In this document: in pieces, positions 2,327 through 21,202 of the stretch
Numbering within the stretch: position 1 is the stretch's first letter
Layout: each line of letters begins with the position of its first letter
Origin: Oscillospiraceae bacterium
GTDB lineage: Bacteria; Bacillota; Clostridia; Oscillospirales; Ruminococcaceae
Assembly (NCBI GenBank): GCA_016281125.1
Contig: JAEEIA010000061.1
Location: 1-64,000 of the forward strand
Direction of reading: 5' to 3'
Length of the DNA stretch: 64,000 bases
Notes under the pieces: model-generated
What the model saw: the letters and a program-made list of their open reading frames with translations, nothing else
Database searches by the model: none
Told to the model about the DNA's origin: nothing
Program-made: the position numbers and the translations under genes

Positions 2327-2327
2327 T

Positions 2328-4839: not shown

Positions 4840-5590
4840 TATTCTGATTTTCGGCGGCACGACAGAGGGACGCGAGCTTGCGGCATTCTGCGCGGCAAAC
4901 GGCATCTCCGCGGACGTATCCGCCGCAACGGAATACGGCGCGCAGCTGCTCCCGGAGCAGGTCGGCATTCTGACCGGAAAGCGCTCCGCGGAACAGATCG
5001 CGGCACTGCTCCGGACACACCGGTATGCGCTCGTCATTGACGCGACGCATCCGTATGCAAGAGAGGCATCGGAAAATATCCGCACGGCCTGTCAGCAGGA
5101 GCAGATTCCCTGCCGCCGTCTGCTGCGGAAGGCGCTGCCGGTCACCGGGGAACGCGTCAGCTCCGCTGCTGCGCTGACTGCACTGCTGAATCAGTGCAGC
5201 GGCGTGATTCTGAGTACGCTCGGCAGCAAATCTGCGGCTGCACTGACCGCCGTCCGGGATTTCCGTACACGCATCTGGCTCCGGCTGCTGCCGTCGGACA
5301 CCGTCACAGCGGAATGCGAACGCCTCGGCTTTGATCCGGATAAGCTGATTCTTGCGCAGGGGCCGTTTGATACGGCGCAGAATATTGCGCATATCACACA
5401 GACCGGCGCGCAGATCCTACTGACCAAGGAGAGCGGGACAATCGGAGGATACCCCGAAAAAGCGGAGGCGGCAAAGCGCTGCGGCATCCGGATGATCACC
5501 CTTTGCAGGCCGCCGGAACCCCTCGCCGGATATGATGAAACGGAAATCATGCAGCAGCTGCTGAAAATGAAGGAGAAGAATCTGCTATGA
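4832..5590 (+). CDS. cbiJ: Cobalt-precorrin-6A reductase CbiJ
   Basis: CbiJ (CobK family) reduces the macrocycle of cobalt-precorrin-6A with a nicotinamide nucleotide. The 252-residue protein opens with ILIFGGTTEGRELA, the expected nucleotide-binding loop. It also carries the family segment DATHPYAREAS near residues 70-80 and a C-terminal TKESGTIGGYPEK motif. It begins inside the cbiH reading frame and overlaps cbiET by four bases. Confidence 0.93.
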   Translation: MSDILIFGGTTEGRELAAFCAANGISADVSAATEYGAQLLPEQVGILTGKRSAEQIAALLRTHRYALVIDATHPYAREASENIRTACQQEQIPCRRLLRKALPVTGERVSSAAALTALLNQCSGVILSTLGSKSAAALTAVRDFRTRIWLRLLPSDTVTAECERLGFDPDKLILAQGPFDTAQNIAHITQTGAQILLTKESGTIGGYPEKAEAAKRCGIRMITLCRPPEPLAGYDETEIMQQLLKMKEKNLL

Positions 5591-8129: not shown

Positions 8130-9147
8130 CCGCCTCGCCTATGACGCGGCAAAACGGCAGTGGGACAGCATCGCAAAGCCGCTCGGCAGCTTCGGCACAT
8201 TGGAACGGATGATCTGCAAAATTGCCGCCGTGCAGGGTACGCCGGAGGTTCACATTGACAGGCGAACCGCCGTTATTTTCTGCGGCGACCACGGCATCAC
8301 CGCGGAGGGCGTGACGCAGTGCGGCAGCGAGGTCACGGCGGTCTGCGCAAAAGAAATCGCGGAGGGGCGCTCCAATGTCAATGCACTCGCCGCAGCATAT
8401 CATGTGCAGGTCGCCGCGGTGGATACCGGCATCCGGGACGCGGTGCAGTCCACGGCTTTACTCCGCAGGCATATTGCGGACGGCACGCGGAACTTCACCC
8501 AGGAACCCGCCATGACCGAAGCACAGACCGTGCAGGCAATCCGCACCGGCATAGACCTTGCAGGAGATTATAAAGCGCAGGGCACGGACATTCTGATTGC
8601 CGGGGAAATGGGCATCGGCAACACGACAGCCGCCGCGGCACTCGCTGCCGTTCTGCTGGATCTGCCGCCGGAGGCCGTCACGGGCAGAGGCTCCGGACTC
8701 AGCAGCGAGGGGCTGCTGCGAAAAATCGAAACGGTGCGCCGCGGCATTGCACTGCACCGCCCGGAGAAACACAACCCGCTGCATCTGCTGCAAACGCTCG
8801 GCGGGCTGGAAATTGCGGGCATGACAGGGCTGTATCTCGGCGCGGCATATTATCAGCTGCCGGTCATTCTGGACGGCGTGATCTCCGCTGCGGCTGCCGC
8901 TGCCGCATATCAGATGAATCCGCGCTGCGGGGATTATATGCTGGCCAGCCACTGCTCGGAGGAGCCCGCCGCAAAGGGGCTGCTCCGGATGATGCAGCTT
9001 GAACCCGTCATTGACGCGGGACTGCGGCTCGGGGAGGGCACCGGCGCGATGCTGCTTCTGCCGCTGCTGGACGGCGCGCTGGCGCTGTACCGGAACGCGC
9101 ACCGCTTTGCGGAAACCGGCATAGAAAGGTATACGGAACAAATATGA
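8098..9147 (+). CDS. cobT: Nicotinate-nucleotide--dimethylbenzimidazole phosphoribosyltransferase CobT
   Basis: CobT moves the phosphoribosyl group of nicotinate mononucleotide onto the lower-ligand base to make an alpha-ribazole phosphate. The 349-residue protein begins at ATG 8098, inside cbiA, with GGAG just upstream. The family segments KPLGSFGTLE and FCGDHGITAEGV are near the N-terminus, and RLGEGTGA near the C-terminus holds the probable catalytic glutamate E313. Lower-ligand synthesis genes (bza, bluB) are not in the window, so the base used cannot be read from this sequence. Confidence 0.94.
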   Translation: MERISRILPSDRLAYDAAKRQWDSIAKPLGSFGTLERMICKIAAVQGTPEVHIDRRTAVIFCGDHGITAEGVTQCGSEVTAVCAKEIAEGRSNVNALAAAYHVQVAAVDTGIRDAVQSTALLRRHIADGTRNFTQEPAMTEAQTVQAIRTGIDLAGDYKAQGTDILIAGEMGIGNTTAAAALAAVLLDLPPEAVTGRGSGLSSEGLLRKIETVRRGIALHRPEKHNPLHLLQTLGGLEIAGMTGLYLGAAYYQLPVILDGVISAAAAAAAYQMNPRCGDYMLASHCSEEPAAKGLLRMMQLEPVIDAGLRLGEGTGAMLLLPLLDGALALYRNAHRFAETGIERYTEQI

Positions 9148-9665
9148 CGACGTTGATCACAGGGGGCTCCAAATGCGGAAAATCGCGGTTTGCGGAATCG
9201 CTTCTGCTGTCCCATTCCGGGCAGCGGCGCTATCTGGCAACGATGCAGCCGTTCGGCGCGGATGCGGAGCGGGCAATCGCACGGCACCGCGAAATGCGCG
9301 CAGGCAAAGGATTTTCCACAACCGAACAGTATACGGATCTGCACAGGCTGATGCTGCCCCCGCACTGCGGCGTGCTGCTGGAATGCCTCTGCAACCTCAC
9401 GGCGAATGAGATGTTCCGGGAAGATCCCGCGCCGGACGTCCTCCGCCATATCATGCGCGGCATCCGGCATTTGCAGTTGCAGGCGGAACAGCTTGTGATC
9501 GTGACCGGACAGGTCGGCAGTGACGGCATCCGGTATCCCGCAGAAACAGATGCATATATCGCACTGCTCGGTGCCGTCAGCCGGGAAACCGCCGCGCTTG
9601 CGGATGCTGTCTACGAATGCGTATACGGGATTCCCGTGCTGCTGAAAGGAGCCGCATCATGCTGA
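9144..9665 (+). CDS. cobU: Adenosylcobinamide kinase / adenosylcobinamide-phosphate guanylyltransferase CobU
   Basis: CobU phosphorylates adenosylcobinamide and then attaches GMP. The 173-residue length fits the family. Visible features are a P-loop, GGSKCGKS (7-14), the RHR triad at 47-49 whose H48 is the likely guanylated histidine, and the C-terminal VYGIPVLLKG. The segment expected to read NEVG is TGQVG here, a mild departure. It overlaps cobT by four bases and cobS by seven. A second, shorter CobU-like gene follows cobS. Confidence 0.9.
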   Translation: MTTLITGGSKCGKSRFAESLLLSHSGQRRYLATMQPFGADAERAIARHREMRAGKGFSTTEQYTDLHRLMLPPHCGVLLECLCNLTANEMFREDPAPDVLRHIMRGIRHLQLQAEQLVIVTGQVGSDGIRYPAETDAYIALLGAVSRETAALADAVYECVYGIPVLLKGAASC

Positions 9666-10429
9666 AATCAATGCTCTCGGCGTTTATGATGTACTCACGC
9701 ATCCCGGTGCCGCAGATCGCATGGAAGGAAGAAAACCGCCGCTATTCGCTCGGCTGGTTCCCGCTGATCGGCGCGGTCACGGGGCTGATGCTGCTGCTCT
9801 GGCGCCTGCTCTGCAATCTGCTGCATCTTCCGCAGATGCTGTTCGCAGCGGGCGCGGTCTGCCTGCCGGTCTGCGTCACAGGCGGCATTCATCTGGACGG
9901 CTACTGCGATGTCACCGACGCGCTGGCGTCCTGTGCCGACCGTGAGAAAAAGCTCGCAATTATGTCAGATCCGCATATCGGATCGTTTGCGGTCATCCGC
10001 GTCTGCCTGTATCTGATCGTGCAGACGGCGCTGCTGACGGAGCTTGGCACGCTGCGCGATGTCTGCCGGATCGGCTGCGGCCTGATCCTGTCCCGCGCGC
10101 TGAGCGGACTCTCCGCGGTCACGTTCCGCTGCGCGAAAAAGGACGGCACGCTTCAGAGCTTTGTTAAGCCCTCGCACCGCACCGTCACGACCGGCATGTG
10201 CATCGGCTGGATGCTCCTGTCCGGCTGCGGAATCTGCGCCTGCGGGCTGCTGCCCGGACTGCTGATGCTCGCCGCGGCTGCGGCTGTCTTTATCCATTAC
10301 CGCGCTGCTGCATACAAGCACTTCGGCGGCATCACGGGCGACCTCTGCGGCTGGTTTTTGCAGCGCTGCGAGCTCGCCGTGCTGACGGCCGCGGTGCTCG
10401 GACAATCCATCACGGAGGTGTTCGCATGA
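9659..10429 (+). CDS. cobS: Adenosylcobinamide-GDP ribazoletransferase CobS
   Basis: CobS is the membrane enzyme that joins adenosylcobinamide-GDP to alpha-ribazole (phosphate). The 256-residue protein has about six or seven hydrophobic helices. It shows the family motif GIHLDGYCDVTDAL (77-90) followed by KLAIMSDPHIGSFAV, whose acidic residues bind metal and substrate. FGGITGDLCGWFLQ near the C-terminus is the second conserved site. ATG 9659 is preferred over the upstream in-frame ATG inside cobU because it gives the normal N-terminus LKSMLSAFMMYSRIPVP. Confidence 0.93.
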   Translation: MLKSMLSAFMMYSRIPVPQIAWKEENRRYSLGWFPLIGAVTGLMLLLWRLLCNLLHLPQMLFAAGAVCLPVCVTGGIHLDGYCDVTDALASCADREKKLAIMSDPHIGSFAVIRVCLYLIVQTALLTELGTLRDVCRIGCGLILSRALSGLSAVTFRCAKKDGTLQSFVKPSHRTVTTGMCIGWMLLSGCGICACGLLPGLLMLAAAAAVFIHYRAAAYKHFGGITGDLCGWFLQRCELAVLTAAVLGQSITEVFA

Positions 10430-10812
10430 TGCTTCTGACCGGCGGTGCATACCAGGGAAAAACCGCCTATCTTCTGAAAAATTTGCCGGATATTGTCTGT
10501 ACGGACGGCGAAACATGCAGCTTTTCCGAAGCGGAGCACGCTCAATGCATCAATCATTATCACGCGCTGATCCGGCGGCTTTTTGAAGCGCAGGAGGATC
10601 CTGCCGCATGGACGGCGCGCTACTGTGACGCGCATCCGGACGGCATCATTCTGCTCAATGAAACCGGCTGCGGCATCATCCCGCTGGATTCTGCGGAACG
10701 GCGGCTCCGTGAGCTGACCGGCATCTGCGGCTGCATCGTTGCAGAACACGCGCAGACGGTCATCCGCATCACCTGCGGGATTCCTTCGGCAATCAAGGGT
10801 GATCTGCCGTGA
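10426..10812 (+). CDS. Second, shortened CobU-like P-loop protein
   Basis: A 128-residue paralogue-like protein. It has an N-terminal P-loop GGAYQGKT (6-13) and the CobU-type segment NETGCGIIPLDSAERRLREL. Its C-terminus, from about residue 99, also matches the end of CobU up to a GIP motif. It lacks the RHR triad that carries the guanylated histidine, and it is about 45 residues shorter than the CobU encoded at 9144. GGAGG lies upstream of ATG 10426, which overlaps the cobS stop; the gene ends four bases into cobC. It may be a kinase-only CobU, a partner subunit of the other CobU, or a degenerate copy that kept its frame. Confidence 0.75.
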   Translation: MMLLTGGAYQGKTAYLLKNLPDIVCTDGETCSFSEAEHAQCINHYHALIRRLFEAQEDPAAWTARYCDAHPDGIILLNETGCGIIPLDSAERRLRELTGICGCIVAEHAQTVIRITCGIPSAIKGDLP

Positions 10813-11369
10813 AGCTGCTGATGATCCGGCACGGGCTGACTGCCGGAAATCTCGAAAAACGCTACATCGGCACAACGGACGAACCGCTCTGCGAAGCGGG
10901 CATCCGGCAGCTCCGCAGCTGTTCGTATCCGATGAGCGAGGTGCTGCTGACCAGCCCCATGCAGCGCTGTATCCAGACCGCGGCCATCCTGTTTCCGGGG
11001 CAGGCCGCACAGACCGTCCCGGATTTCCGCGAGTGCGATTTCGGGGATTTTGAGGGCAAAAGCTATGCCGAACTGAACGGCGATCCACAGTATCAGGCTT
11101 GGATCGACAGCGGCGGGACTGCCCCGTTTCCGCACGGCGAATCGCCTGCTGCATTCCGGCAGCGCTGCTGTGATGCCTTCTCCGCCGCAATGAAACAATA
11201 TGCAGACGCAGAAAACATCTGCATGGTCGTACACGGCGGCACGATCATGTCCGTTCTGGCGGAATTTGCCCTGCCAAAGCGCAGCTATTACGACTGGATG
11301 ACGGAAAACGCACACGCCCGGTCTTGTGAATTTGACGGCCGGAATATTCGATTTTCGGAGAAGCTATGA
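10809..11369 (+). CDS. cobC: Alpha-ribazole phosphatase CobC (histidine phosphatase family)
   Basis: CobC removes the phosphate from alpha-ribazole 5'-phosphate or from adenosylcobalamin 5'-phosphate. The 186-residue protein has the phosphoglycerate-mutase-like signature MIRHGLTAGN with the phosphorylated histidine H8. The supporting catalytic residues follow: R53-type TSPMQRCIQTA, E75 in RECDFGDFEG and H142 in VVHGGT. The last four bases overlap cbiB. Family membership is certain; the specific substrate is inferred from its place among nucleotide-loop assembly genes. Confidence 0.9.
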   Translation: MKLLMIRHGLTAGNLEKRYIGTTDEPLCEAGIRQLRSCSYPMSEVLLTSPMQRCIQTAAILFPGQAAQTVPDFRECDFGDFEGKSYAELNGDPQYQAWIDSGGTAPFPHGESPAAFRQRCCDAFSAAMKQYADAENICMVVHGGTIMSVLAEFALPKRSYYDWMTENAHARSCEFDGRNIRFSEKL

Positions 11370-12334
11370 AACATTTTCTGCCTGCGGTTCCGATGCTGCT
11401 CGGCTTTCTGCTGGACGCGTGCATCGGGGATCCGCATGATTTCCCGCACCCGGTACGCTGGATCGGGAACCTGATTTCTGCACTGGAGGCCGTCGTCCGG
11501 CGGCGCATGAAAAACCTGCGCTGCGGCGGGGTGCTGCTGGTGATCACCGTGCTGCTCCTCTCCGCGGGACTGCCCGCGCTGCTGCTTCTGCTCTGCTACC
11601 GCCTGCATCTCCTTGCGGGCATCGCGGCGGAGAGCGTTCTGATCTGTTATCTGCTGGCCGCCCGGAGCCTGCGCGACGAGAGCATGGCGGTCTGCACAGC
11701 GGCGGAATCCGGCGACACCGAAGCTGCCCGCAAAGCAGTTTCCATGATTGTCGGGCGGGATACGGCGGTGCTTGACCGCGACGGCATCCTGCGTGCCGCG
11801 GTCGAAACCGTTGCGGAAAACACCTCGGACGGCGTGACCGCGCCTTTGTTTTATATTGCGCTCGGCGGTGCTGTCGGCGGCTTTTTTTACAAAGCAGCGA
11901 ACACCATGGATTCGATGCTCGGCTACAAAAACGAGAAATACGCAGACCTCGGGCGGTGCGCCGCAAAGCTCGACGATGTGCTGAATTATCTCCCGTCGCG
12001 GCTGACGGCGCTGCTGATGATCGCAGCATGCAGGCCGCTGCGCCTTGACGCCGGAAACGCCGCACGCATCTGGAAACGCGACCGCAGAAAGCACGCAAGT
12101 CCGAACTCTGCGCAGACGGAGTCCGTATGCGCGGGCGCGCTGCATCTGCGGCTGGCGGGCGATGCGCAGTATTTCGGAGAGCTGCATAAAAAGCCGTTTA
12201 TCGGGGACAATGACCGCGCAATCGAACCTGCGGATATCCGCAGGGCGAACCGGCTGATGTACGGTGCATCCCTGCTGATGCTGCTGCTCAGTGCGGTTGT
12301 CCGCTGCCTGCTGCTTTGGAGGATATTGCCATGA
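11366..12334 (+). CDS. cbiB: Adenosylcobinamide-phosphate synthase CbiB
   Basis: CbiB is a polytopic membrane protein that joins aminopropanol phosphate (or a related amine) to adenosylcobyric acid. The 322-residue length is normal. DACIGDPHDFPHPVRWIG (17-34) and the NTMDSMLGYKNEKYADLG segment near residue 180 are diagnostic. The gene overlaps cobC and cobD by four bases each. The neighbouring cobD supplies the aminopropanol phosphate from threonine phosphate. Confidence 0.94.
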   Translation: MKHFLPAVPMLLGFLLDACIGDPHDFPHPVRWIGNLISALEAVVRRRMKNLRCGGVLLVITVLLLSAGLPALLLLLCYRLHLLAGIAAESVLICYLLAARSLRDESMAVCTAAESGDTEAARKAVSMIVGRDTAVLDRDGILRAAVETVAENTSDGVTAPLFYIALGGAVGGFFYKAANTMDSMLGYKNEKYADLGRCAAKLDDVLNYLPSRLTALLMIAACRPLRLDAGNAARIWKRDRRKHASPNSAQTESVCAGALHLRLAGDAQYFGELHKKPFIGDNDRAIEPADIRRANRLMYGASLLMLLLSAVVRCLLLWRILP

Positions 12335-13362
12335 GAACGCACGGCGGAAATGTGTTACGTCACGCCGGAATGCTCGATTTTTCCGCAAATATCAGCCCGC
12401 TCGGGATGCCGGAGGCCGTGCGCAGAGCCGTCACGGAATCCGCCGCGGAATGCGCACAGTATCCCGATCCGCACTGCACCGCGCTGACAGCGGCGATTGC
12501 GGCGTTTGAAGCGTGCAGCCCCGCGCAGATTGTCTGCGGGAACGGTGCGGCCGATCTGATTTTCCGGATTGTCAGCGCGTTCCGGCCGCGCCATGCACTG
12601 CTCTGCGCGCCGACGTTTTCAGAGTACGCCCATGCGCTGATGCAAAACGGGTGCAGCATCACGGAATACCCGCTGGATGCATCGCAGAATTATCAGCTTG
12701 ATGCAGGATTTGCGGATGCGCTGACGGATGAATTGGATATTGTTTTTTTGTGTACGCCGAATAATCCGACCGGCCAGCTGATTGCCCCTGCACTGCTCCG
12801 TCGGATCGCAGAAAAATGCCGGAAATACAATATTTTGCTTGTTTGTGATGAATGCTTTCTGCGATTTTGTGCAGATGCAGCGTTATACAGTCTGCGGCCG
12901 TATCTGTATGAAAGCGGCATCATTCTGCACGCATTCACAAAGCTGTTTGCAATGCCGGGGCTGCGGCTCGGCTATGCGCTCTGCGGCAGCCCGGAAACAG
13001 CAGAAACGCTCCGCAATACCGGGCAGTTCTGGAGTGTATCCGTCCCCGCGCAGGCGGCGGGCATCGCGGCGCTGCAATGCACCGAACGCATCCCGCAGAC
13101 TGTGCAGTATATTGCGCAGGAGCGTGCATTTCTGGCTGACGGGCTGCGGGACGCCGGCATCCGCGTATTTCCCGGCGCGGCCAATTTCCTGCTGCTGACT
13201 GCACCGGCGGATTTCGCGGAACAGATGCAGCAGCGCGGTATCGTCGTGCGGAAATGCACGGATTTTCACGGTTTATCGGATTCGTTTTTCCGGATTGCCG
13301 TCCGCACGCAGGAAGAAAACGAAACGCTGCTCGCAGCGGTCAGGGAGGTGTACGGCGGATGA
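12331..13362 (+). CDS. cobD: L-threonine-O-3-phosphate decarboxylase CobD
   Basis: CobD is a PLP-dependent class I/II aminotransferase-fold enzyme that decarboxylates threonine phosphate to (R)-1-amino-2-propanol phosphate for the nucleotide loop. The 343-residue protein begins HGGNVLRHAGMLDFSANI, typical of the family. It has NNPTG at 144-148, D173 for the cofactor pyridine nitrogen and the Schiff-base lysine K204 in HAFTKLFAMPGLRLGY. ATG 12331 is chosen over an ATG 15 bases upstream because it follows GGAGG and overlaps the cbiB stop. The threonine kinase (PduX/BluE type) is not seen here. Confidence 0.92.
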   Translation: MRTHGGNVLRHAGMLDFSANISPLGMPEAVRRAVTESAAECAQYPDPHCTALTAAIAAFEACSPAQIVCGNGAADLIFRIVSAFRPRHALLCAPTFSEYAHALMQNGCSITEYPLDASQNYQLDAGFADALTDELDIVFLCTPNNPTGQLIAPALLRRIAEKCRKYNILLVCDECFLRFCADAALYSLRPYLYESGIILHAFTKLFAMPGLRLGYALCGSPETAETLRNTGQFWSVSVPAQAAGIAALQCTERIPQTVQYIAQERAFLADGLRDAGIRVFPGAANFLLLTAPADFAEQMQQRGIVVRKCTDFHGLSDSFFRIAVRTQEENETLLAAVREVYGG

Positions 13363-14825
13363 AAGCGATTATGATTCAGGGCACGATGTCCGGTGTCGGA
13401 AAAAGCCTGCTGACAGCGGCGCTCTGCCGCATTTTCCGGCAGGACGGGTACCGTGTTGCGCCGTTCAAATCGCAGAACATGGCGCTCAATTCGTATATCA
13501 CGCCGGACGGTCTGGAGATCGGGCGCGCACAGGCATTGCAGGCGGAAGCCGCAGGCATCGAGCCCTCCGCGCTGATGAACCCGGTGCTGCTCAAGCCGAC
13601 CACTGACCTCGGCTCGCAGGTCATCGTCAACGGCAGAGTGCGCGGCCATATGCGCGCGGCGGAGTATTTCCGGCGCAAAACCGGGCTGCTCCCGGATATC
13701 CGGCAGGCATTTGAAACGCTCGCGGCACAGTATGACATCATCGTTGTGGAGGGCGCGGGCAGTCCTGCGGAGCTCAATCTGAAACGGGACGACATCGTCA
13801 ACATGGGGCTCGCGGAAATGCTGCGGATTCCCGTGCTGCTCGCCGGAAACATCGACTGCGGCGGCGTTTTTGCGCAGCTGCTCGGCACATACGCGCTACT
13901 GGAGCCGCAGGAGCAGGCGCTCGTCAGGGGGCTGATTGTCAATCAGTTCCGCGGCGACCGCAGGCTTTTCCAGGACGGCGTTGCGATTCTGGAGCAAAAA
14001 AGCGGGCTGCCGGTGCTCGGCGTCGTGCCGTATTTCAGGCATGATCTGGAGGACGAGGACAGCCTCTCGAACCGCCTCGCAAAAACGCAGAATACCGGCA
14101 TCATCGACATTGCGGTGATCCGGCTCCCGCGCATCTCCAACTTTTCGGATATGGACGTATTTTCGCAGTTTTCCGGTGTATCAGTCCGCTATGTATCCAA
14201 ACCGGAACAGCTCGGAAATCCGGATCTGCTGATATTGCCCGGCACAAAAAGTACGATTTCGGATATGCAGTGGATGCAGGAAACCGGCATAGACCGCGCG
14301 GTTACCGCATATGCAAAGCGCGGATTCCCGGTATTCGGCATCTGCGGCGGCTACCAGATGCTCGGCACGGAGATTGCCGACCCTGACGGAACGGAAAGCG
14401 GCGGCACGGTATCCGGGCTCGGACTGCTCCCCTGCCGGACGGTCTTTCAAGCGCAGAAAACACAGACACGCACAGAAGGACAATTCAACGAAATACCGGG
14501 CTTTTTCTCCTGTCTTTCTCATGTGCAGTTTTACGGCTATGAAGTGCATATGGGCGTGACAGAAACCGAATCTTCGCCGCTGACCGACTGCGGCGGCGCA
14601 TACACCGGCAATATTGCCGGATGCTATATTCACGGCGTATTTGACAGTGCGGCGGTTTCCGGTACGCTGATACAAGCGCTGTACCAGGCAAAGGGGCTGC
14701 GGTATCAGGGCGAGATAACAGACCGCAGGCAGCACCGTGAACAGCAGCTTGATATCCTTGCGGACACCGTCCGAAACAGCCTTGATATGCAGAAAATCTA
14801 TCAGATCACGGAGGAAGGCGTATGA
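13359..14825 (+). CDS. cbiP: Adenosylcobyric acid synthase CbiP
   Basis: CbiP (CobQ) amidates the b, d, e and g side chains of adenosylcobyrinate a,c-diamide with ATP and glutamine. The 488-residue protein has P-loop GTMSGVGKS (8-16) followed by FKSQNMALNSY. A C-terminal class I glutaminase domain carries nucleophile C329 in GICGGYQMLG and H425 in CYIHGVFDS. The frame is open 105 bases upstream, but ATG 13359 overlaps the cobD stop and gives the normal start. It overlaps cbiC by four bases. Confidence 0.95.
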   Translation: MKAIMIQGTMSGVGKSLLTAALCRIFRQDGYRVAPFKSQNMALNSYITPDGLEIGRAQALQAEAAGIEPSALMNPVLLKPTTDLGSQVIVNGRVRGHMRAAEYFRRKTGLLPDIRQAFETLAAQYDIIVVEGAGSPAELNLKRDDIVNMGLAEMLRIPVLLAGNIDCGGVFAQLLGTYALLEPQEQALVRGLIVNQFRGDRRLFQDGVAILEQKSGLPVLGVVPYFRHDLEDEDSLSNRLAKTQNTGIIDIAVIRLPRISNFSDMDVFSQFSGVSVRYVSKPEQLGNPDLLILPGTKSTISDMQWMQETGIDRAVTAYAKRGFPVFGICGGYQMLGTEIADPDGTESGGTVSGLGLLPCRTVFQAQKTQTRTEGQFNEIPGFFSCLSHVQFYGYEVHMGVTETESSPLTDCGGAYTGNIAGCYIHGVFDSAAVSGTLIQALYQAKGLRYQGEITDRRQHREQQLDILADTVRNSLDMQKIYQITEEGV

Positions 14826-15451
14826 AGCTCGAATATGTGCTGCCTGCCGAGATTGAGCAGCGCAGCTTTGCCATCATCGAATCAGAGCTTGACCGTGAAA
14901 TCCCGCAGGAAATCAAACCGGTTGTCATGCGCGTCATTCATACGACCGCGGATTTTGACTATCTGGACAGTCTTTATTTTTCACCGGATGTCATGGACAT
15001 TGCCATGCGGACGATTGAAAACGGCGCGGTCTTTGTGACGGATACGAATATGGCAAAGGCAGGCATCAACAAGGCAGCGCTTGCACGGCACGGCTGCACC
15101 TGCGAATGCTTCATGGCAGAACCGGAAATCGCTGCCGCCGCAAAGCAGAACGGTACCACCAGAGCGACAGCTTCCGTGGACAAAGCCGCCGCACTCGGAA
15201 AGCCTGTCATATATGCGGCCGGCAATGCCCCGACGGCGCTGATCCGGCTGACGGAGCTGCTGGAACAGGGCATCTTCCGGCCGGAGCTGGTGATCGGCGT
15301 GCCGGTCGGGTTTGTCAATGTTGTGCAGTCCAAAGAAATGCTGATTGCATCCGGCATTCCGTGCATTGCCGCACGCGGACGGAAGGGCGGCAGCAATGTT
15401 GCCGCGGCAATCTGCAATGCACTGCTTTATCTTGCAGACAAAAAATTGTAA
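14822..15451 (+). CDS. cbiC: Cobalt-precorrin-8 methylmutase CbiC
   Basis: CbiC moves the C11 methyl group to C12, converting cobalt-precorrin-8 to cobyrinate. The 209-residue length is normal; the catalytic histidine is H40 in RVIHTTADFDY. The AGNAPTAL and VPVGFVNV(V)QSKE segments that line the active site are present. It is the last gene of the operon. I see no clear intrinsic terminator after its stop, and the riboswitch unit begins only 27 bases further on with its own promoter. Confidence 0.95.
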   Translation: MKLEYVLPAEIEQRSFAIIESELDREIPQEIKPVVMRVIHTTADFDYLDSLYFSPDVMDIAMRTIENGAVFVTDTNMAKAGINKAALARHGCTCECFMAEPEIAAAAKQNGTTRATASVDKAAALGKPVIYAAGNAPTALIRLTELLEQGIFRPELVIGVPVGFVNVVQSKEMLIASGIPCIAARGRKGGSNVAAAICNALLYLADKKL

Positions 15452-15477: not shown

Positions 15478-15506
15478 TTGCATTTCAGCGTTATTTGCGC
15501 TATAAT
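15478..15506 (+). promoter_or_regulatory. Promoter of the riboswitch-led chelatase/importer unit
   Basis: TTGCAT (15478-15483), 17 bases and TATAAT (15501-15506). The sequence from the -10 box onward (TATAATATTGCTG then a CATGA) is nearly the same as that at the cbiD promoter (1160-1180). Confidence 0.8.
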
Positions 15507-15534
15507 ATTGCTGTTCATGAACAAAACTGAATAA

Positions 15535-15725
15535 GTGCAGACGGTGCGGCTGATTGCGGAACACGATGCAGCCGGTAAAAGGGAAGCAGGTCAGAATCCT
15601 GCACGATCTCGTCACTGTATTTGCGGAGCGGTATGCCGTTTCCGGCGCATCCGGAAAGGTCACTGGGAAACCGGGAAGGCCTGACATACCGTGCTGATGC
15701 ATAAGCCAGGAAACCTGCCGTTTTG
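15535..15725 (+). promoter_or_regulatory. Cobalamin riboswitch aptamer
   Basis: The conserved core of the cobalamin riboswitch is readable: CGGCTG/CAGCCG pairing near 15547-15574, AAAGGGAA at about 15578-15585, a GCAGG/CCTGC stem holding AGAATCC, then CGTCACTGTA. Further on is CACTGGGAAACCGGGAAGGC. The classic B12 box GCCAGGAAACCTGCC is at 15705-15719. It binds adenosylcobalamin or a related corrinoid in the nascent RNA. An intrinsic terminator follows at 15810, so the expected logic is premature termination when corrinoid is plentiful. Confidence 0.93.
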
Positions 15726-15809
15726 CCGGTACAGAGCCGGAAGGCTCAGATCACGAGGGATTGATCGTACTGTTGGCAGGCTCTCCGGCAGCGGAAGGGT
15801 CTGTTTGCG

Positions 15810-15845
15810 ATGCTTTCTTTCCTGACGGAGAGGAAGCATTTTTTG
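15810..15845 (+). terminator. Riboswitch expression-platform terminator
   Basis: A 13-pair stem (15810-15822 with 15827-15839, two G-U pairs) around a TGAC loop is followed by a run of T, 40 bases before the cbiK start. An upstream stretch, GGCAGGCTCTCCGGCAGCGG at about 15775-15794, can pair with CCTGCCG next to the B12 box and may act in switching. The terminator is read directly; the switching partner is inferred. Confidence 0.8.
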
Positions 15846-15884
15846 CGACCCATGCCCCCTTTTGTTTGAAAGGATGTATCAATC

Positions 15885-16937
15885 ATGAAAAGGAAACTTG
15901 CTGTCATTATGAGTATTGCAATGCTGGCTGCACTGACCGGCTGCGGCGAAACGGCCGCTCCGGCGGACAGCACCGCTGAGAGCAGCGCCGCTGAAACCAC
16001 CGCGCCGGAGGAAACCGAAGCAGAAGCAGAAACAACCGCACCGGAGGAATCCTCTGAGGAGGAGGCACCGGCCGAAGAAGAAGAGGACGAGGAAAACTAC
16101 GAAACCGGCGATGCGTCCCTTGATAACGTCCGCAATCAGGACGAGATCGGTGAAAAGGAACTGCTGGTTCTGAGCTTCGGCACGAGCTACAATGACAGCC
16201 GCCGCCTGACGATCGGCGCCATCGAGGATGCGCTGGACAAGGCATTCCCGGATTACAGCGTGCGCCGCGGCTTTACCGCAAATATCATCATCGACCACGT
16301 CAACCGCCGCGACGGCATCCTGATCGACGATGTGGACGCTGCATTGCAGAGAGCCATCGACAACAACGTGAAAACGCTGGTCGTGCAGCCGACGCATCTG
16401 ATGCACGGTCTGGAATACAACGATCTGCTTGAACAGGTCGGCGCAAAGGCCGATGCCTTTGACAAGGTCGTGTTCGGTGAGCCGCTGCTCAATACCGATG
16501 ACGATTTCAAGCGCGTGGAAACCGCGATCACTGACTGGACGAAGGAATATGACGACGGCAAAACCGCGATCTGCTTTATGGGACACGGCACCGAGGCCGA
16601 TTCCAATTCCGTCTATCAGAAGATGCAGGATCTGCTGACCGCAGACGGCTTCCAGAACTACTTTGTCGGCACGGTCGAGGCAACGCCGTCCGTTGACGAT
16701 GTGCTTGCAAAGGTACAGGCCGGCGACTATGAGCGCGTCGTGCTGGAGCCGCTGATGGTCGTCGCAGGCGATCACGCAAACAACGACATGGCAGGCGACG
16801 AGGAGGATTCCTGGAAATCCGTGTTCGAGGGCGCAGGCTATGAAGTCAAGTGTCTGGTGCGCGGACTCGGTGAGAACGAGGCGATCCGTCAGATCTACAT
16901 TGACCACGCGAAGGCAGCGATTGATTCCATTCAGTAA
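15885..16937 (+). CDS. cbiK: Lipoprotein-type sirohydrochlorin cobaltochelatase CbiK
   Basis: The mature part (residues about 88-350) is a CbiK-family class II chelatase. VLSFGTSYNDS opens the fold, and candidate metal ligands lie in QPTHLMHGLEY (H171, H174), GHGT (H234) and VVAGDHANNDMAGD (H297). In the cytoplasmic relatives the enzyme inserts Co2+ into sirohydrochlorin. Here it is preceded by a signal peptide with a lipobox ending at C20 (LAALTGC) and a 55-residue acidic Glu/Ala/Thr linker, so it should be anchored outside the membrane. A periplasmic CbiK is known in Desulfovibrio vulgaris, where a role in haem or metal handling was proposed. Strong AAAGGATG-type ribosome site upstream. It is the first gene after the cobalamin riboswitch. 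It could be a biosynthetic chelatase, but its location argues for capture or metal handling. Confidence 0.88.
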   Translation: MKRKLAVIMSIAMLAALTGCGETAAPADSTAESSAAETTAPEETEAEAETTAPEESSEEEAPAEEEEDEENYETGDASLDNVRNQDEIGEKELLVLSFGTSYNDSRRLTIGAIEDALDKAFPDYSVRRGFTANIIIDHVNRRDGILIDDVDAALQRAIDNNVKTLVVQPTHLMHGLEYNDLLEQVGAKADAFDKVVFGEPLLNTDDDFKRVETAITDWTKEYDDGKTAICFMGHGTEADSNSVYQKMQDLLTADGFQNYFVGTVEATPSVDDVLAKVQAGDYERVVLEPLMVVAGDHANNDMAGDEEDSWKSVFEGAGYEVKCLVRGLGENEAIRQIYIDHAKAAIDSIQ

Positions 16938-16947
16938 CATATTACAG

Positions 16948-16971
16948 TCCGGGCAGCTTTTGCTGTCCGGA
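16948..16971 (+). other. Intercistronic hairpin between cbiK and the next lipoprotein gene
   Basis: TCCGGGCAGC (16948-16957) pairs with GCTGTCCGGA (16962-16971) around TTTT, with one G-U pair. Only a weak T-containing stretch follows, so it is more likely an RNA-stability or attenuating hairpin than a full terminator. Confidence 0.5.
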
Positions 16972-16991
16972 TTCTGTATCGGGAGGAAACC

Positions 16992-17942
16992 ATGAAACAG
17001 AAATTCTTAGCACTGACAGCCCTCTGCGCGCTGCTGCTGACCGGCTGCGGACAGACCGCAGCACCTGCGGCGGATTCCGCACAGACGGAAACAACGGCAG
17101 CCGCAGAGCAGACAACCGAATCCGCGCCGGAAACCACCGCGCCGGAGGACAGCGCCGCGGATGAATCCTCGCTCGCGGTCGCATCCGGCGATGACGTCAT
17201 TGAAGCCAATGCCGTCGGCTACGAGGGAATGGAGCCGGTTCCAGCGGAATCTGTCAGGGACGGAGAATATGAGATTTCTGTCGATTCCAGCTCCGCAATG
17301 TTCAAGATCGCATCCTGTAAGCTGACCGTCGCAGACGGAAAAATGACCGCTGCACTGACGATCAACAGCAAGAGCTACGAGGCGCTCTTTGCCGGTACGG
17401 CAGAGGAGGCGGCAAAGGCCGATGCCGCGGATTACATTGCACCCGAAGAGGCAGACGGCGTCAGCGTGTTCACATTCCCGGTCGAAGCACTGGATCAGGA
17501 AATCCCCTGCGCCGCCCTCAGCCGGAAAAAGCAGCTCTGGTATGACCGCCTGCTTGTGTTCCGTGCGGATTCGCTCCCCGAGGATGCGCTGCCGGAGCGG
17601 GAAAAGGTCACTGCGGAATCGCTTGCGCTTGAGGACGGCGAATATACCGTAAATGTTGAGCTTGAGGGCGGCTCCGGCCGTGCAAGCGTGCAGTCACCGG
17701 CAAAGCTGACGGTTTCCGGCGGCAGGGCGACCGCCGAGATTGTCTGGAGCAGCAACAAATATGATTACATGCTGGTGGACGGCGAAAAGTACGAGCCGGT
17801 CAGCACGGAGGAATACTCTGTGTTTGAAATCCCGGTTTCCGAATTTGACCGGGCACTGAAAATCGCCGCAGATACGACCGCGATGAGCACCCCGCACGAG
17901 ATCGAATACACGCTGTATTTTGAGGCGGCGTCCGTCGCATGA
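16992..17942 (+). CDS. Two-domain lipoprotein, possibly haem/tetrapyrrole-binding (Shp/NEAT-like)
   Basis: A 316-residue lipoprotein: lipobox LLLTGC with C19, a Thr/Ala/Glu linker to about residue 88, then two related beta-rich domains (about 90-195 and 214-312). Both domains start DGEYxxxV, have a glycine-rich turn before an alternating strand, and end with a conserved F-x-x-PV then a F/D segment. Notable residues are M103 in SAMFK, Y258-M260 in YDYM and M298 in ADTTAMS; methionine and tyrosine are typical axial haem ligands in Shp and NEAT proteins. The pattern resembles Shp-type haem-binding lipoproteins, but I cannot prove homology by eye. It lies between cbiK and the importer binding protein, with which it overlaps by four bases, so it is probably a relay or receptor for the imported compound. 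Confidence 0.6.
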   Translation: MKQKFLALTALCALLLTGCGQTAAPAADSAQTETTAAAEQTTESAPETTAPEDSAADESSLAVASGDDVIEANAVGYEGMEPVPAESVRDGEYEISVDSSSAMFKIASCKLTVADGKMTAALTINSKSYEALFAGTAEEAAKADAADYIAPEEADGVSVFTFPVEALDQEIPCAALSRKKQLWYDRLLVFRADSLPEDALPEREKVTAESLALEDGEYTVNVELEGGSGRASVQSPAKLTVSGGRATAEIVWSSNKYDYMLVDGEKYEPVSTEEYSVFEIPVSEFDRALKIAADTTAMSTPHEIEYTLYFEAASVA

Positions 17943-19060
17943 ACCGGCGTCTGCTGCTGATTCCGGCAGTCTGGATCCTGCTGACCGGATGCGCCGGAAC
18001 CGCCCCGGCACAGACTGTTTCCGGTCTGAACGTCACGGGGCAGATGCCGCTCTCCTACGCGGCGGAGTTTTCCGTGGATTACTGTGAAAACGGCTATGCC
18101 TGCATCCATACCGGCACGGAGGCGCATCTTCTGGTGCCGGAGGGAATGCCGGTGCCGGAGGGCAATCAGCTCCCCGTGATACAGCAGCCCGTTTCGCATA
18201 TCTATGCAGCGTCGTCCGCAGTCATGGATCTGTTTGATGCGCTCGGCGCCCTCGGTGCCGTGGAGATGACCTCGACCGATCTGAACAGCTGGACGCTCCC
18301 GCATGTGCAGGACGCGATGCAGCGCGGCGATCTGACCTATATCGGCAAATACAGCACGCCGGATTATGAAGCCCTGCTGGAAACCGACTGCGGGCTGGTC
18401 ATCGAAAATACCATGATTCTGCATTCGCCTGCCGTCCGGGAGCAGATCATCTCCCTCGGAATCCCCGTCATCACGGAGCGCTCCAGCTATGAGGCGCACC
18501 CGCTCGGGCGCATGGAATGGATCAAACTCTACGGTCTGCTGCTCGGCAAAACGGAGGAAGCGGAGCGCTTTTTTGCGGAAAAGGCCGCAGAGGTGCAGGC
18601 ACTGCCGCAGTCATCCCTGCCGGAGGAACAGCGCCCGACAGCAGCCTTTTTCAGCATCACCGCGAACGGCAGCGTCAACATCCGCAAGCCCGGCGACTAT
18701 ATCTCGCAGATGATCGGCATGGCGGGAGGACGCTACATTTTCAGCGCCGCCGATCTGCACATTGACGAAAATGCACTTTCGACGATGAATATTCAGATGG
18801 AAACCTTCTATGAAACCGCCCGGGACGCCGACGTGCTGATCTATAACAGCACGATTGAAGGCAAGCCGGAATCGCTGGATGCGCTGCTGAAAAAAAGCAC
18901 GCTGCTCCGCGACTTCCGCGCGGTCAAAGCGCAGAACGTCTGGTGTACTGAGCTGAACACGTTTCAGCAGACGACCGGCGCTGCGGATATGATTGCGGAT
19001 CTGCACCGCATTTTCAGCGGTGAGCCCGGCGAACTGACCTATCTTGCGCGGCTGCAATAA
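17939..19060 (+). CDS. ABC importer substrate-binding lipoprotein, BtuF/FhuD type
   Basis: A 373-residue extracellular lipoprotein with lipobox ILLTGC (C18). After a short variable region it has the class III binding-protein layout: an N-lobe with AASSAVMDLFDALGALGAVEMTST, a long connecting helix near ERSSYEAHPLGRMEWIKLYG, and a C-lobe ending QQTTGAADMIADLHRIF. This class binds cobalamin, haem or ferric siderophores. Its place behind a cobalamin riboswitch favours a corrinoid or cobalt tetrapyrrole. It overlaps the preceding gene by four bases and precedes the permease by 16. Confidence 0.82.
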   Translation: MNRRLLLIPAVWILLTGCAGTAPAQTVSGLNVTGQMPLSYAAEFSVDYCENGYACIHTGTEAHLLVPEGMPVPEGNQLPVIQQPVSHIYAASSAVMDLFDALGALGAVEMTSTDLNSWTLPHVQDAMQRGDLTYIGKYSTPDYEALLETDCGLVIENTMILHSPAVREQIISLGIPVITERSSYEAHPLGRMEWIKLYGLLLGKTEEAERFFAEKAAEVQALPQSSLPEEQRPTAAFFSITANGSVNIRKPGDYISQMIGMAGGRYIFSAADLHIDENALSTMNIQMETFYETARDADVLIYNSTIEGKPESLDALLKKSTLLRDFRAVKAQNVWCTELNTFQQTTGAADMIADLHRIFSGEPGELTYLARLQ

Positions 19061-19076
19061 ACAGAAAGGAAACGCG

Positions 19077-20096
19077 ATGATGTCAACACGCACGGTACGC
19101 ACCGCCGCAGGATTTCTGATTCTGATTCTGCTGGCCGCGGTGCTGTTCTGCCTGAGCCTGACAACCGGCACCGGCAGAATCTCCGCATCCGAAGCAATCC
19201 GCATTCTGATGCAGGGCAGAACGGACTCTCCCTCCGCCCGCATCATCTTTGATATCCGGATGCCGCGTACACTCTCTGCGATGCTGCTCGGCGGTGCGCT
19301 GGCAGTCGCGGGCTTTCTGCTCCAGAGCTTCTTCCGCAACCCGATTGCCGGGCCGTTCGTACTCGGCATCTCGTCCGGCGCCAAGCTCTGCGTCGCGCTC
19401 GTGATGATCGCTGCGATGCAGCAGGGAATGCTGCTGCATTCGGGAATTCTGGTCGCGGCGGCCTTTGCCGGTGCGCTGCTCTGTATGCTGGCTGTCCTGC
19501 TGTTTGCAGGCAAAGTCCGGCAAATGGCGCAGCTCATCATCAGCGGCGTCATGATCGGTTATATTTGCAGCGCCCTGACGGATCTCGCCGTCACCTTTGC
19601 CGATGACGCCAACATTGTCAATCTGCACAACTGGTCGCGCGGCAGCTTTTCCGGCACCGGCTGGACGGATGTCCGCGATATGGCCGTCATCATCGCCGCC
19701 GCGATGGCAGGCGCCGTGCTGATTTCCAAGCCGATTGCCGCGTATCAGCTCGGAGAGGAATACGCCCGAAGCATGGGCGTCCGGATTCTGCCGTTCCGCA
19801 TCGGGCTGATTCTGCTTTCCAGCCTGCTGGCGGCCTGCGTCACGGCCTTTGCAGGGCCTGTTTCCTTTGTGGGCATCGCGGTGCCGCACCTCGTCAGGAG
19901 CCTGTTCCGCACCGCCAGACCGCTGATTATCATTCCGGCGGCATTTCTCGGCGGCAGCGTATTCTGCATGGGCTGCGACCTGCTCGCGCGGATGCTGTTT
20001 GCACCGCAGGAGCTGAGTGTCAGCACGGTGACCGCCGTATTCGGCGCGCCGGTCGTGCTCTGGGTGATGCTCCGCCGGGAAAGGGGGCGCAGTTGA
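19077..20096 (+). CDS. ABC importer permease, FecCD/BtuC family
   Basis: A 339-residue integral membrane protein with about nine or ten predicted helices. It contains the BtuC-family motif GALAVAGFLLQSFFRNPIAGPFVLGISSGA near residues 79-108 (an unbroken hallmark across this family) and the C-terminal coupling region FAGPVSFVGIAVPHLVR. It would form a homodimeric channel taking substrate from the binding protein at 17939. ATG 19077 is used rather than the in-frame start 33 bases upstream, because AAAGGAAACGCG lies directly before it. It overlaps the ATPase gene by four bases. Confidence 0.88.
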   Translation: MMSTRTVRTAAGFLILILLAAVLFCLSLTTGTGRISASEAIRILMQGRTDSPSARIIFDIRMPRTLSAMLLGGALAVAGFLLQSFFRNPIAGPFVLGISSGAKLCVALVMIAAMQQGMLLHSGILVAAAFAGALLCMLAVLLFAGKVRQMAQLIISGVMIGYICSALTDLAVTFADDANIVNLHNWSRGSFSGTGWTDVRDMAVIIAAAMAGAVLISKPIAAYQLGEEYARSMGVRILPFRIGLILLSSLLAACVTAFAGPVSFVGIAVPHLVRSLFRTARPLIIIPAAFLGGSVFCMGCDLLARMLFAPQELSVSTVTAVFGAPVVLWVMLRRERGRS

Positions 20097-21202
20097 TGGA
20101 CAGGCCGCCTTTGCTTGAAACCAAAGACCTTGCCGCCGGATACCGGAAAAAGGTTATCGCGGACGGCATCTGCTTTACGGTGCGCGCCGGTGAAATTCTG
20201 ACGCTGATCGGCCCGAACGGCGCGGGAAAATCCACGATTCTGAAAACGGTTGCCGCACAGCTCGAAAGCATCTCCGGAGAGGTTGCACTGTGCGGAAAAC
20301 CGCTTGACAGTCTGCATGAAAAGGACATCGCAAAGCAGCTTTCGATCCTGTTCACCGCGCGGATCACCGCAGAACGGCTGACCTGCTTTGATGCTGCCGC
20401 TGCGGGGCGATATCCCTACACGGGAATGCTCGGGCTGCTTTCGGAAAAAGACCGCGCGATTGTCACGGAAGCACTGGAAATGACCGGCGCTGCGGAACTT
20501 GCGGAGCAGGAATTCCGCGAGATCAGCGACGGTCAGCGGCAGAGCGTCATGCTGGCCAGAGCCATTGCGCAGGAGCCGCGTGTGCTGCTGCTCGATGAGC
20601 CGACCTCCTATCTCGACATCAGCCGCAAGCTGGAGCTGCTGACACTGCTGCGGCGTCTTGCAAAGGAACGCGGCATCGCTGTGGTCATGTCACTGCATGA
20701 GCTCGACCTTGCACAGAAGTTTTCGGATCAGGTGCTCTGCATCAGCAGCGGCAGGGCGCAGCGCATCGGCACGCCGGAGGAGATTTTCCGCGGGGATTAC
20801 ATCTCGGAGCTGTACGGCATCCGCAGCGGCCGGTACGATCCGCTGTACGGCACCGCAGAGCCCGCGCCCCCTGCCGGGGATCCGCAGGTCTTTGTGATCG
20901 GCGGCGGCGGCACGGCAATTCCGGTCTGCCGCAGACTGTTCCGTGCAGGCATCCCGTTTGCGGCAGGCGTCATTCACGAAAACGATCTGGATTATCCGGT
21001 GCTGGCTGCGCTGAGCACGAAGCTCATCACCGCGCCCCCCTTTGAACCGATCCCGGAGGATGCCTTCGCAGCAGCGCGCAACTGCATGACACAGTGCCGC
21101 TCCGTGATCTGCACCGTACAGACCTTCGGCACGCTCAACCGGCAGAATGAAGCCCTCCGTACACTGGCAGAAGCCGCCGGAACGCTCCGGACAGAGATCT
21201 GA
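20093..21202 (+). CDS. ABC importer ATPase, BtuD/FhuC type, with extra C-terminal domain
   Basis: A 369-residue cytoplasmic ATPase. Walker A is GPNGAGKST (40-48), the signature is the variant ISDGQ (144-148), Walker B is VLLLDEP (164-170) and the switch histidine is H202. The nucleotide-binding domain ends near residue 245. Residues about 264-369 form a separate alpha/beta domain opening with VFVIGGGGTAIPVCRRL, a glycine-rich loop like that of nucleotide-binding folds, and containing conserved-looking AGVIHENDLDYPV. Similar extensions occur in some BtuD-like ATPases of archaea and clostridia; their role is not known to me. A sensor of nucleotide or corrinoid is possible but unproven. It is the last gene of the riboswitch unit. 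Confidence 0.87.
   Translation: MMDRPPLLETKDLAAGYRKKVIADGICFTVRAGEILTLIGPNGAGKSTILKTVAAQLESISGEVALCGKPLDSLHEKDIAKQLSILFTARITAERLTCFDAAAAGRYPYTGMLGLLSEKDRAIVTEALEMTGAAELAEQEFREISDGQRQSVMLARAIAQEPRVLLLDEPTSYLDISRKLELLTLLRRLAKERGIAVVMSLHELDLAQKFSDQVLCISSGRAQRIGTPEEIFRGDYISELYGIRSGRYDPLYGTAEPAPPAGDPQVFVIGGGGTAIPVCRRLFRAGIPFAAGVIHENDLDYPVLAALSTKLITAPPFEPIPEDAFAAARNCMTQCRSVICTVQTFGTLNRQNEALRTLAEAAGTLRTEI

What the first reader, a model, noticed from the sequence alone, without database searches (positions are those of the whole stretch)
15478..21202. Surface chelatase plus tetrapyrrole-type ABC importer under a cobalamin riboswitch
Seen: promoter, complete cobalamin riboswitch with terminator, then CbiK with signal peptide and lipobox, a two-domain lipoprotein, a class III binding protein, a BtuC-type permease and an ATPase, all overlapping or closely spaced. 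Known: CbiK normally acts in the cytoplasm on sirohydrochlorin; a periplasmic form exists in Desulfovibrio. Inference: a Gram-positive outside-facing system that captures a corrinoid, cobalt or a metal-free tetrapyrrole, perhaps loads or removes metal at the surface, and imports the product when B12 is low.
Basis: partly seen in the sequence, partly recalled or inferred. Interest (0 to 1): 0.72.

Follow-up and report, generated by a model that had tools for sequence, protein, structure and literature searches.

The report
Surface chelatase feeding truncated B12 pathway
Gut bacteria related to Ruminococcus make vitamin B12 with a pathway whose first half appears to be missing, and a B12-controlled set of surface proteins looks built to catch a half-made B12 ring outside the cell, probably load it with cobalt, and import it.

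Summary
In detail: a cobalamin riboswitch with terminator precedes a lipoprotein CbiK, a two-domain NEAT-type lipoprotein, and an SBP-permease-ATPase importer. The unit follows the genome's late cobamide operon, and in this 95.5%-complete draft genome the surface CbiK is the only CbiK/CbiX-type chelatase found, with no SUMT, CbiL, HemB or CbiM. Eleven of 13 same-genus CbiK genomes show the same methyltransferase set. CbiK stands directly before NEAT in 73 of 80 loci looked at, and a riboswitch precedes 44 of 47 surface-CbiK units scanned. HemB is absent in 19 of 28 surface-CbiK genomes against 7 of 52 with cytoplasmic CbiK only, though a descent-corrected test has too few pairs. One lipoprotein fuses a NEAT-type domain to CbiK. 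Best reading: an import route for an early pre-corrin tetrapyrrole (sirohydrochlorin or factor III level), cobalt-loaded at the surface, that replaces the lost front half of cobamide synthesis. Substrate and chemistry are inferred; Iht-like heme/iron uptake is the main rival.

The parts
1202..15451 (+). Late cobamide operon: cbiD, cbiF, cbiG, cbiH, cbiJ, cbiET, cbiA, cobT, cobU, cobS, short cobU-like gene, cobC, cbiB, cobD, cbiP, cbiC. No cbiL, SUMT, cbiX or second cbiK in it.
   Evidence: NCBIfam over cut-off for CbiD, CbiF, CbiH, CbiJ (barely), CbiA/CobB, CobT, CbiB, CobD, CbiP; best NCBIfam models below cut-off for CbiG, the CbiT part of cbiET, CobS, CobC and CbiC, CbiC also by Pfam; TP_methylase match for the CbiE part; short cobU-like gene by Pfam. 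The gene at 9144-9665 had no NCBIfam match at 1e-30; cobU is my reading.
15478..15506 (+). Promoter-like TTGCAT-17-TATAAT
   Evidence: Seen by eye; not over the scan's threshold.
15525..15736 (+). Cobalamin riboswitch aptamer
   Evidence: RF00174, 78.6 bits.
15810..15844 (+). Terminator-like hairpin and T run, probable expression platform of the riboswitch
   Evidence: RNA fold z -5.0; not listed by the consensus scan.
15885..16937 (+). Surface lipoprotein CbiK-type class II chelatase (350 aa; lipobox LTGC, acidic linker, chelatase domain 91-346)
   Evidence: PF06180 4e-81; the three solved matches are FetB (9b86), cobalt chelatase 1qgo and a putative chelatase 2xvx (their organisms recalled: P. 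gingivalis, Salmonella, D. vulgaris); E177, H234, H297 kept.
16992..17942 (+). Lipoprotein with two NEAT-type domains (316 aa)
17939..19060 (+). Class III substrate-binding lipoprotein (BtuF/FepB-like, 373 aa)
   Evidence: PF01497 3.4e-28; profile matches Lmo2184 1.4e-8, YfmC 1.7e-4, IsdE 0.004; fold tied between siderophore and heme binders.
19077..20096 (+). FecCD/BtuC-type permease
   Evidence: PF01032 1.6e-77; top NCBIfam model BtuC, 194 bits, below its 334 cut-off, siderophore permeases next at 172.
20093..21202 (+). ABC ATPase with a C-terminal extension of about 112 aa
   Evidence: PF00005 2.8e-29; top NCBIfam model corrinoid ABC transporter ATPase NF007082 over residues 5-364, 227 bits, below its 537 cut-off.

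Best explanation
A B12-repressed acquisition system for an early, pre-corrin tetrapyrrole that replaces the missing front half of cobamide synthesis. When B12 is low the riboswitch lets the unit be made. The two-domain NEAT lipoprotein catches a sirohydrochlorin-type ring (factor II, or in this genus factor III) at the cell surface. The lipoprotein CbiK puts Co2+ into it outside the membrane. The binding lipoprotein and the BtuCD-type transporter import the cobalt form. Inside, CbiL (where kept, as in R. flavefaciens 007c) or directly CbiH (in the window's genus) continues to cobamide. Shown by sequence: genes, order, riboswitch, lipoboxes, intact catalytic residues, early genes not found in the searched assemblies, recurrence, a NEAT-CbiK fusion. 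Inferred: substrate, direction of the metal reaction, order of hand-over, repression by B12.
For: (1) Own genome: one CbiK, the lipoprotein; the CbiX search finds only that same gene; four TP_methylases, CbiF, CbiH, CbiE and RsmI, so no SUMT or CbiL; no HemB; no CbiM. The same families were found in 14 (TP_methylase), 11 (HemB) and 3 (CbiM) of 14 control genomes. (2) Unlikely an assembly gap: of 13 same-genus CbiK genomes 11 have exactly four TP_methylases, two have fewer; HemB in 0 of 17 same-genus genomes tested; the 4 CbiK-less same-genus genomes tested (of 17) have one TP_methylase each. (3) All 12 same-genus CbiK loci fetched carry cob genes beside cbiK-neat-btuF-btuC-btuD. (4) Riboswitch on the same strand ahead of the surface-CbiK unit in 44 of 47 relatives' loci, none near cbiD in the 4 loci checked. 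(5) NEAT-type domain fused to CbiK in one lipoprotein, L242. (6) Catalytic Glu and two His: 75 of 75 NEAT-selected CbiKs; 99 and 100 of 100 in the class set, which mixes surface and cytoplasmic. (7) HemB absent in 19 of 28 surface-CbiK genomes against 7 of 52 cytoplasmic-only; Fisher p 1.9e-6, within-family permutation p 3.5e-4. (8) Four surface CbiKs without NEAT (L171, L173, L175, L181) lie among cytoplasmic CbiKs in the tree; three of these genomes lack HemB and the fourth has a second, cytoplasmic CbiK.
Against: HemB is present in 12 of 50 NEAT-selected genomes and in 9 of 28 surface-CbiK genomes of the class sample, so the unit also occurs beside a front end; only 4 of those 50 and 5 of those 9 have a second CbiK. 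Two more surface CbiKs without NEAT (L206, L210) have no riboswitch within 5 kb, and one of their genomes, G326, has HemB and one CbiK. On the CbiK gene tree only 2 supported independent pairs exist (5 in all), so the association is not significant after correction for descent. CbiM reaches its cut-off weakly in one same-genus CbiK genome, G028. The nearest solved CbiK relative, FetB, is filed as heme-binding. NEAT domains are known as heme binders (recalled). The SBP fold does not choose between siderophores and heme, and its second profile hit is YfmC, named iron-citrate-binding. Loss of CbiL in this genus forces a factor III-level import, a stronger assumption than sirohydrochlorin. CobN, CysG-type chelatase, NiCoT/CorA cobalt import, HemA/C/D and B12-dependent enzymes were not searched.
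Confidence: 0.5

Rival explanations
1. Heme or iron uptake of the Iht/Isd kind: NEAT catches heme, CbiK works backwards as a surface dechelatase, the ABC system imports iron, or porphyrin.
For: Best solved CbiK match is FetB, named heme-binding; IhtB, a CbiK homologue, is thought to take iron from heme (PMC10913741, passages); NEAT fold; SBP profile hits Lmo2184, YfmC and IsdE.
Against: A cobalamin riboswitch ahead of 44 of 47 units; setting beside the late cob operon; in the genus it goes with the late pathway as far as tested. The heme-type YxxxY motif is in 7 of 46 second NEAT domains and 0 of 46 first ones.
Confidence: 0.17
2. An ordinary importer of finished B12 or cobinamide; CbiK and NEAT are accessory or bind corrinoids.
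For: Cobalamin riboswitch; BtuC and corrinoid-ATPase models rank first for permease and ATPase, both below cut-off.
Against: Established chemistry (recalled): cobalt in finished corrins is not exchanged by class II chelatases, so a CbiK with a conserved active site has no task; NEAT-CbiK fusion; surface CbiK linked with absence of HemB.
Confidence: 0.14
3. Cobalt scavenging: surface CbiK and NEAT concentrate cobalt or a cobalt complex and the ABC system imports it in place of CbiM.
For: CbiM not found in the own genome and reaching the cut-off, weakly, in 1 of 13 same-genus CbiK genomes (G028, 6e-7).
Against: Cobalt alone would not mend the missing SUMT, CbiL and HemB; class III SBPs of this fold take chelates rather than bare ions as a rule (recalled).
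Confidence: 0.07
4. The cell makes the early ring by diverged enzymes that the searches missed, and the unit is a redundant salvage route.
For: 12 of 50 NEAT-selected genomes keep HemB and 12 of 50 have six TP_methylases.
Against: The same families are found in the related genomes G034, G035, G048 and in controls; a CbiL profile of my own finds only CbiF, CbiE and CbiH in the window and 20 fetched loci.
Confidence: 0.07

Closest known systems
IhtABCDE (FetB/IhtB; identity of the two names recalled) of Porphyromonas gingivalis
   Same: CbiK-like lipoprotein with SBP, permease and ATPase (PMC10913741, passages); FetB is the best solved match to this CbiK. P. gingivalis is also reported to lack the steps to precorrin-2 (PMC6461909, passages).
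   Different: Iht has a TonB-dependent receptor and is read as heme/iron uptake; here there are NEAT domains, no such receptor in the unit, and a cobalamin riboswitch. Whether iht has a riboswitch was not tested.
Periplasmic CbiK of Desulfovibrio vulgaris (2xvx; organism and location recalled)
   Same: CbiK outside the cytoplasm; third solved match.
   Different: Not known to me as part of a NEAT and importer unit (recalled).
Isd/Hbp/IsdX NEAT hemophore systems
   Same: NEAT fold in a surface protein beside an ABC importer.
   Different: Chelatase partner, cobalamin riboswitch, YxxxY mostly absent.
BtuFCD cobalamin importers
   Same: Permease and ATPase rank first with BtuC and corrinoid-ATPase models; cobalamin riboswitch.
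   Different: Model cut-offs not met; surface chelatase and NEAT added.
Tetrapyrrole precursor salvagers (Shelton et al., PMC6461909)
   Same: Late cobamide pathway without precursor synthesis (passages and section 13).
   Different: Defined there by complete corrin ring synthesis; here CbiL and an internal CbiK/CbiX are missing too. The passages I saw name no importer.

Membership tests
CbiK class II cobaltochelatase | Pfam CbiK domain over its cut-off | tested here: met
   272.6 bits against 26.2
CbiK class II cobaltochelatase | NCBIfam equivalog sirohydrochlorin cobaltochelatase NF047852 over cut-off | tested here: not met
   229.8 bits against 400; so filed as CbiK-type chelatase, not as this equivalog
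CbiK class II cobaltochelatase | Catalytic His145, His207 (and Glu89) of Salmonella CbiK | tested here: met
   H234, H297, E177 by alignment; the two His are named in PMC7689651 (passages), Glu89 recalled
CbiK class II cobaltochelatase | Cytoplasmic enzyme | tested here: not met
   Signal peptide and lipobox read in the sequence; lipobox pattern in 70 of 73 relatives with a readable start
CbiK class II cobaltochelatase | Cobalt insertion into sirohydrochlorin | not testable with these tools
   needs an enzyme assay
NEAT domain proteins | PF05031 over cut-off | tested here: met
   35.7 bits against 32.8
NEAT domain proteins | NEAT fold, second domain | tested here: met
NEAT domain proteins | NEAT fold, first domain | tested here: inconclusive
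   Modelled with high confidence but barely covered by the structure rows
NEAT domain proteins | YxxxY heme-ligand motif (recalled) | tested here: not met
   7 of 46 second domains and 0 of 46 first domains; the window protein has H302 and Y306 in the last strand
Cobalamin riboswitch | RF00174 over gathering score | tested here: met
   78.6 against 31.5 bits
BtuFCD B12 importer | NCBIfam BtuC and corrinoid ATPase models over cut-off | tested here: not met
   194 against 334 and 227 against 537 bits
IhtABCDE | TonB-dependent receptor in the unit | tested here: not met
   The five genes between 15451 and 21368 are accounted for otherwise
IhtABCDE | Lipoprotein CbiK with SBP, permease, ATPase | tested here: met
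Tetrapyrrole precursor salvager | Precursor genes missing | tested here: met
   HemB not found; HemA, HemC, HemD not searched
Tetrapyrrole precursor salvager | Corrin ring pathway complete | tested here: not met
   CbiL not found

The most novel reading that the evidence does not exclude
The first metal step of B12 synthesis takes place outside the cell. These bacteria gave up the front half of the pathway and take an early ring (sirohydrochlorin or factor III) shed by neighbours, load cobalt on their surface with a relocated CbiK helped by a NEAT protein that has changed its ligand from heme to an isobacteriochlorin, and import the cobalt ring. This would be a cross-feeding trade in a vitamin precursor earlier than any corrinoid, perhaps in hundreds of gut species (340 NEAT matches in one-genome-per-species records, 80 of them looked at), and it would invite a second look at Iht of P. 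gingivalis.
Probability: 0.4. Interest if true: 0.87.

Novelty: new variant of a known kind. Interest (0 to 1): 0.75.

Why it matters
Genome surveys know bacteria that keep late B12 genes without the early ones, but in the passages I read no uptake route is named. This unit is a concrete, widespread candidate with a clear prediction of cargo, regulation and chemistry. If right, pre-corrin tetrapyrroles are traded in the gut and rumen, some bacteria scored as B12 makers or cobinamide salvagers are neither, and a chelatase works as part of a nutrient importer.

Tried and rejected
Assembly gap as the cause of missing early genes: judged unlikely because 11 of 13 same-genus CbiK genomes agree and the other two have fewer hits, and two R. 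flavefaciens records titled as strains (YL228, MA2007; L138 and L152, genomes G090 and G100) also have four TP_methylases, with no CbiL beside cbiD in L296 and L297.

A hidden CbiL upstream of cbiD: a profile of 11 CbiL-type sequences from relatives (six of them scanned with NCBIfam and over the TIGR01467 cut-off) matched only CbiF, CbiH and CbiE genes in the window and loci L286-L305.

Phylogenetic test: independent pairs on the CbiK tree were too few (2 supported, 5 in all) and gave no significance; I report the raw and within-family tests with that limit. HemB was tested in 80 of 98 CbiK genomes: 5 with weak, unfetched CbiK and 13 same-genus duplicates were dropped, the duplicates all cytoplasmic. 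Surface or cytoplasmic was judged by me from the N-termini printed; G000, G048, G049 and G059. Two of the 28 counted as surface, G477 and G193, show a signal peptide but no lipobox by my pattern; one has HemB, one has not.

Solved relatives of the NEAT protein by single sequence: none up to E 1; by profile: four weak ones, best IsdX1 at E 0.074. Of the SBP by single sequence: none up to E 0.001. Fold comparison of the SBP did not decide the ligand. No paper in the held library has both 'NEAT domain' and 'CbiK'; the rows listed show no paper on such a unit, judged from titles and abstract starts only; longer lists were cut.


Full report
What is there. The window is the start of contig C81 (70,279 bp) of a 3.9-Mb draft genome in 98 contigs, 95.5% complete and 3.9% contaminated. 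On the + strand 1202-15451 carries a run of late cobamide genes, cbiD through cbiC. It is followed by a cobalamin riboswitch at 15525-15736, a terminator hairpin, and five genes: lipoprotein CbiK, a lipoprotein with two NEAT-type domains, a class III SBP lipoprotein, a FecCD permease and an ATPase. Its promoter is visible but below the scan's threshold. The riboswitch belongs to the importer unit: none was found near the window's cbiD or in four relatives' loci that hold cbiD and its upstream region (L286, L287, L293, L296).

What is missing. Family searches of the own genome found one CbiK, this lipoprotein; one CbiX-type match, the same gene; and four TP_methylases: CbiF, CbiH and CbiE in the window and RsmI on contig C50. 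SUMT and CbiL belong to that family and should have been seen. HemB was not found, nor CbiM. Of 13 same-genus genomes with CbiK (own included), 11 have exactly four TP_methylases, G025 three and G009 one; four CbiK-less same-genus genomes (of 17) have one each. HemB was found in 0 of 17 same-genus genomes and in 5 of the 9 more distant ones of the same call. CbiM reached the cut-off in one same-genus genome, G028, with a weak partial match. So in this genus the inside pathway appears to start at CbiH, and the only CbiK/CbiX-type chelatase found is outside.

How common. Of 61 genomes (own and relatives) 22 have CbiK, one each. Around 20 of these loci (all but G036 of the 21 outside the own genome) the order late cob genes, cbiK, neat, btuF, btuC, btuD is kept in 12 of 12 same-genus loci; the eight more distant ones show variants, four of them without NEAT or a nearby importer of this type. 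Among the 80, blastp against the window's proteins recovered NEAT in 78, CbiK in 75 and CbiK directly ahead of NEAT in 73; all five gene types on one strand in 60; late cob genes within the fetched DNA in 45; a lipobox pattern in 70 of 73 CbiKs with a readable start, the three misses having signal-like starts. Of the five loci without CbiK, four have NEAT within about 300 bases of a contig end; L129 has over 7 kb ahead of it and still none. The record titles include Ruminococcus flavefaciens strains, Clostridium clostridioforme, Agathobaculum, Fusibacillus, Lawsonibacter and many MAGs named Lachnospiraceae or Oscillospiraceae.

Which early genes the carriers have. Of these genomes 18 have four or fewer TP_methylases, 20 five and 12 six. 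Fetched examples show that the fifth is CbiL in several (NCBIfam TIGR01467 over cut-off for R. flavefaciens 007c and SAb67, Agathobaculum and others) and SUMT in G077. HemB is present in 12 of 50, three of the matched pieces being partial. All 50 have CbiK; four have two copies, G078, G084, G101, G104, and all four have HemB. So the unit occurs with no front end found, with CbiL only, and in a minority beside a front end.

Association test. In a class-wide sample of 393 genomes 98 have CbiK. I fetched surroundings of 100 CbiK loci and judged location from N-termini. Of 80 genomes tested for HemB, 28 have a surface CbiK, and HemB is absent in 19; 52 have only cytoplasmic CbiK, and HemB is absent in 7. 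Fisher p 1.9e-6; collapsed to genera 1.7e-4; to families 0.023; permutation within families 3.5e-4. A second cytoplasmic CbiK is present in 5 of 9 HemB-positive and 2 of 19 HemB-negative surface-CbiK genomes, p 0.02. Against this, the CbiK tree puts 22 surface CbiKs, the window's among them, in one clade (SH-aLRT 97), the label changes five times, and only two supported independent pairs exist, so descent-corrected significance is not reached. The clade spans six families. Four surface CbiKs without NEAT (L171, L173, L175, L181) sit among cytoplasmic ones; three of their genomes lack HemB, the fourth has a second cytoplasmic CbiK. Two more without NEAT, L206 and L210, join a cytoplasmic one; one of their genomes has HemB and one has not.

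Regulation. Riboswitch matches precede surface-CbiK units in 13 of 13, 7 of 7, 13 of 14 (not L252) and 11 of 13 (not L206, L210) loci, together 44 of 47, on the unit's strand; for 13 short loci and L246 I read this from coordinates.

Mechanism. The simplest reading that uses all parts: at low B12 the cell displays NEAT, CbiK and SBP, takes an early ring from outside, inserts cobalt there, and imports the product to the first internal enzyme that it still has. Where CbiL is kept this is cobalt-sirohydrochlorin, CbiK's normal product; in the window's genus it must be one methylation further, cobalt-factor III. That factors II and III are released by cobalt-starved B12 producers is recalled, not from a call. 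The reverse, removal of iron or nickel from a ring before cobalt is added, is also possible.

Compared with what is known. Iht of P. [quoted passage not shown] The same species is reported to lack the steps to precorrin-2 (PMC6461909, passages), so both share the odd pair of a truncated pathway and an outward CbiK. Shelton et al. define precursor salvagers and verified dependence on ALA in three species (PMC6461909, passages and section 13); the passages seen name no importer. A rumen study scored an organism with 8 of 10 corrin steps and 0 of 5 precursor steps as a cobinamide salvager (PMC12654859, passages). No held paper has both 'NEAT domain' and 'CbiK'. I therefore rate it a new variant of a known kind.

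Noticed in passing
window 10426-10812: A short gene (128 aa) between cobS and cobC matches only the C-terminal part of CobU (PF02283 positions 115-167); a homologue is kept at this place in the same-genus loci that reach it, beside another cobU-like gene.
   Followed up: partly
window 20864-21199: The ATPase has a C-terminal extension of about 112 aa without a Pfam match, yet the corrinoid ATPase model NF007082 runs over it.
   Followed up: partly
L235, L237, L240-L243, L245, L246, L251, L252: Surface CbiKs of another family group carry an extra segment of roughly 70 residues between the N-terminal signal region and the chelatase domain, ending in DPDYFGRDTGDAS or similar.
   Followed up: no
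L267, L270 against L296, L297: Within records titled R. flavefaciens, 007c and SAb67 keep cbiL ahead of cbiD while in YL228 and MA2007 none was found: a natural pair for telling which ring is imported.
   Followed up: partly
L044, G059: A genome with cytoplasmic CbiK, CbiL and CbiM but no HemB: a second kind of precursor-dependent cobamide maker without the surface chelatase.
   Followed up: no
G088, G095, G109: Genomes with a long TP_methylase frame of the size of a fused SUMT but no HemB match.
   Followed up: no
window 46697-49705: A 1003-aa protein of the CoA-enzyme activase kind (BcrAD_BadFG and DUF2229).
   Followed up: no
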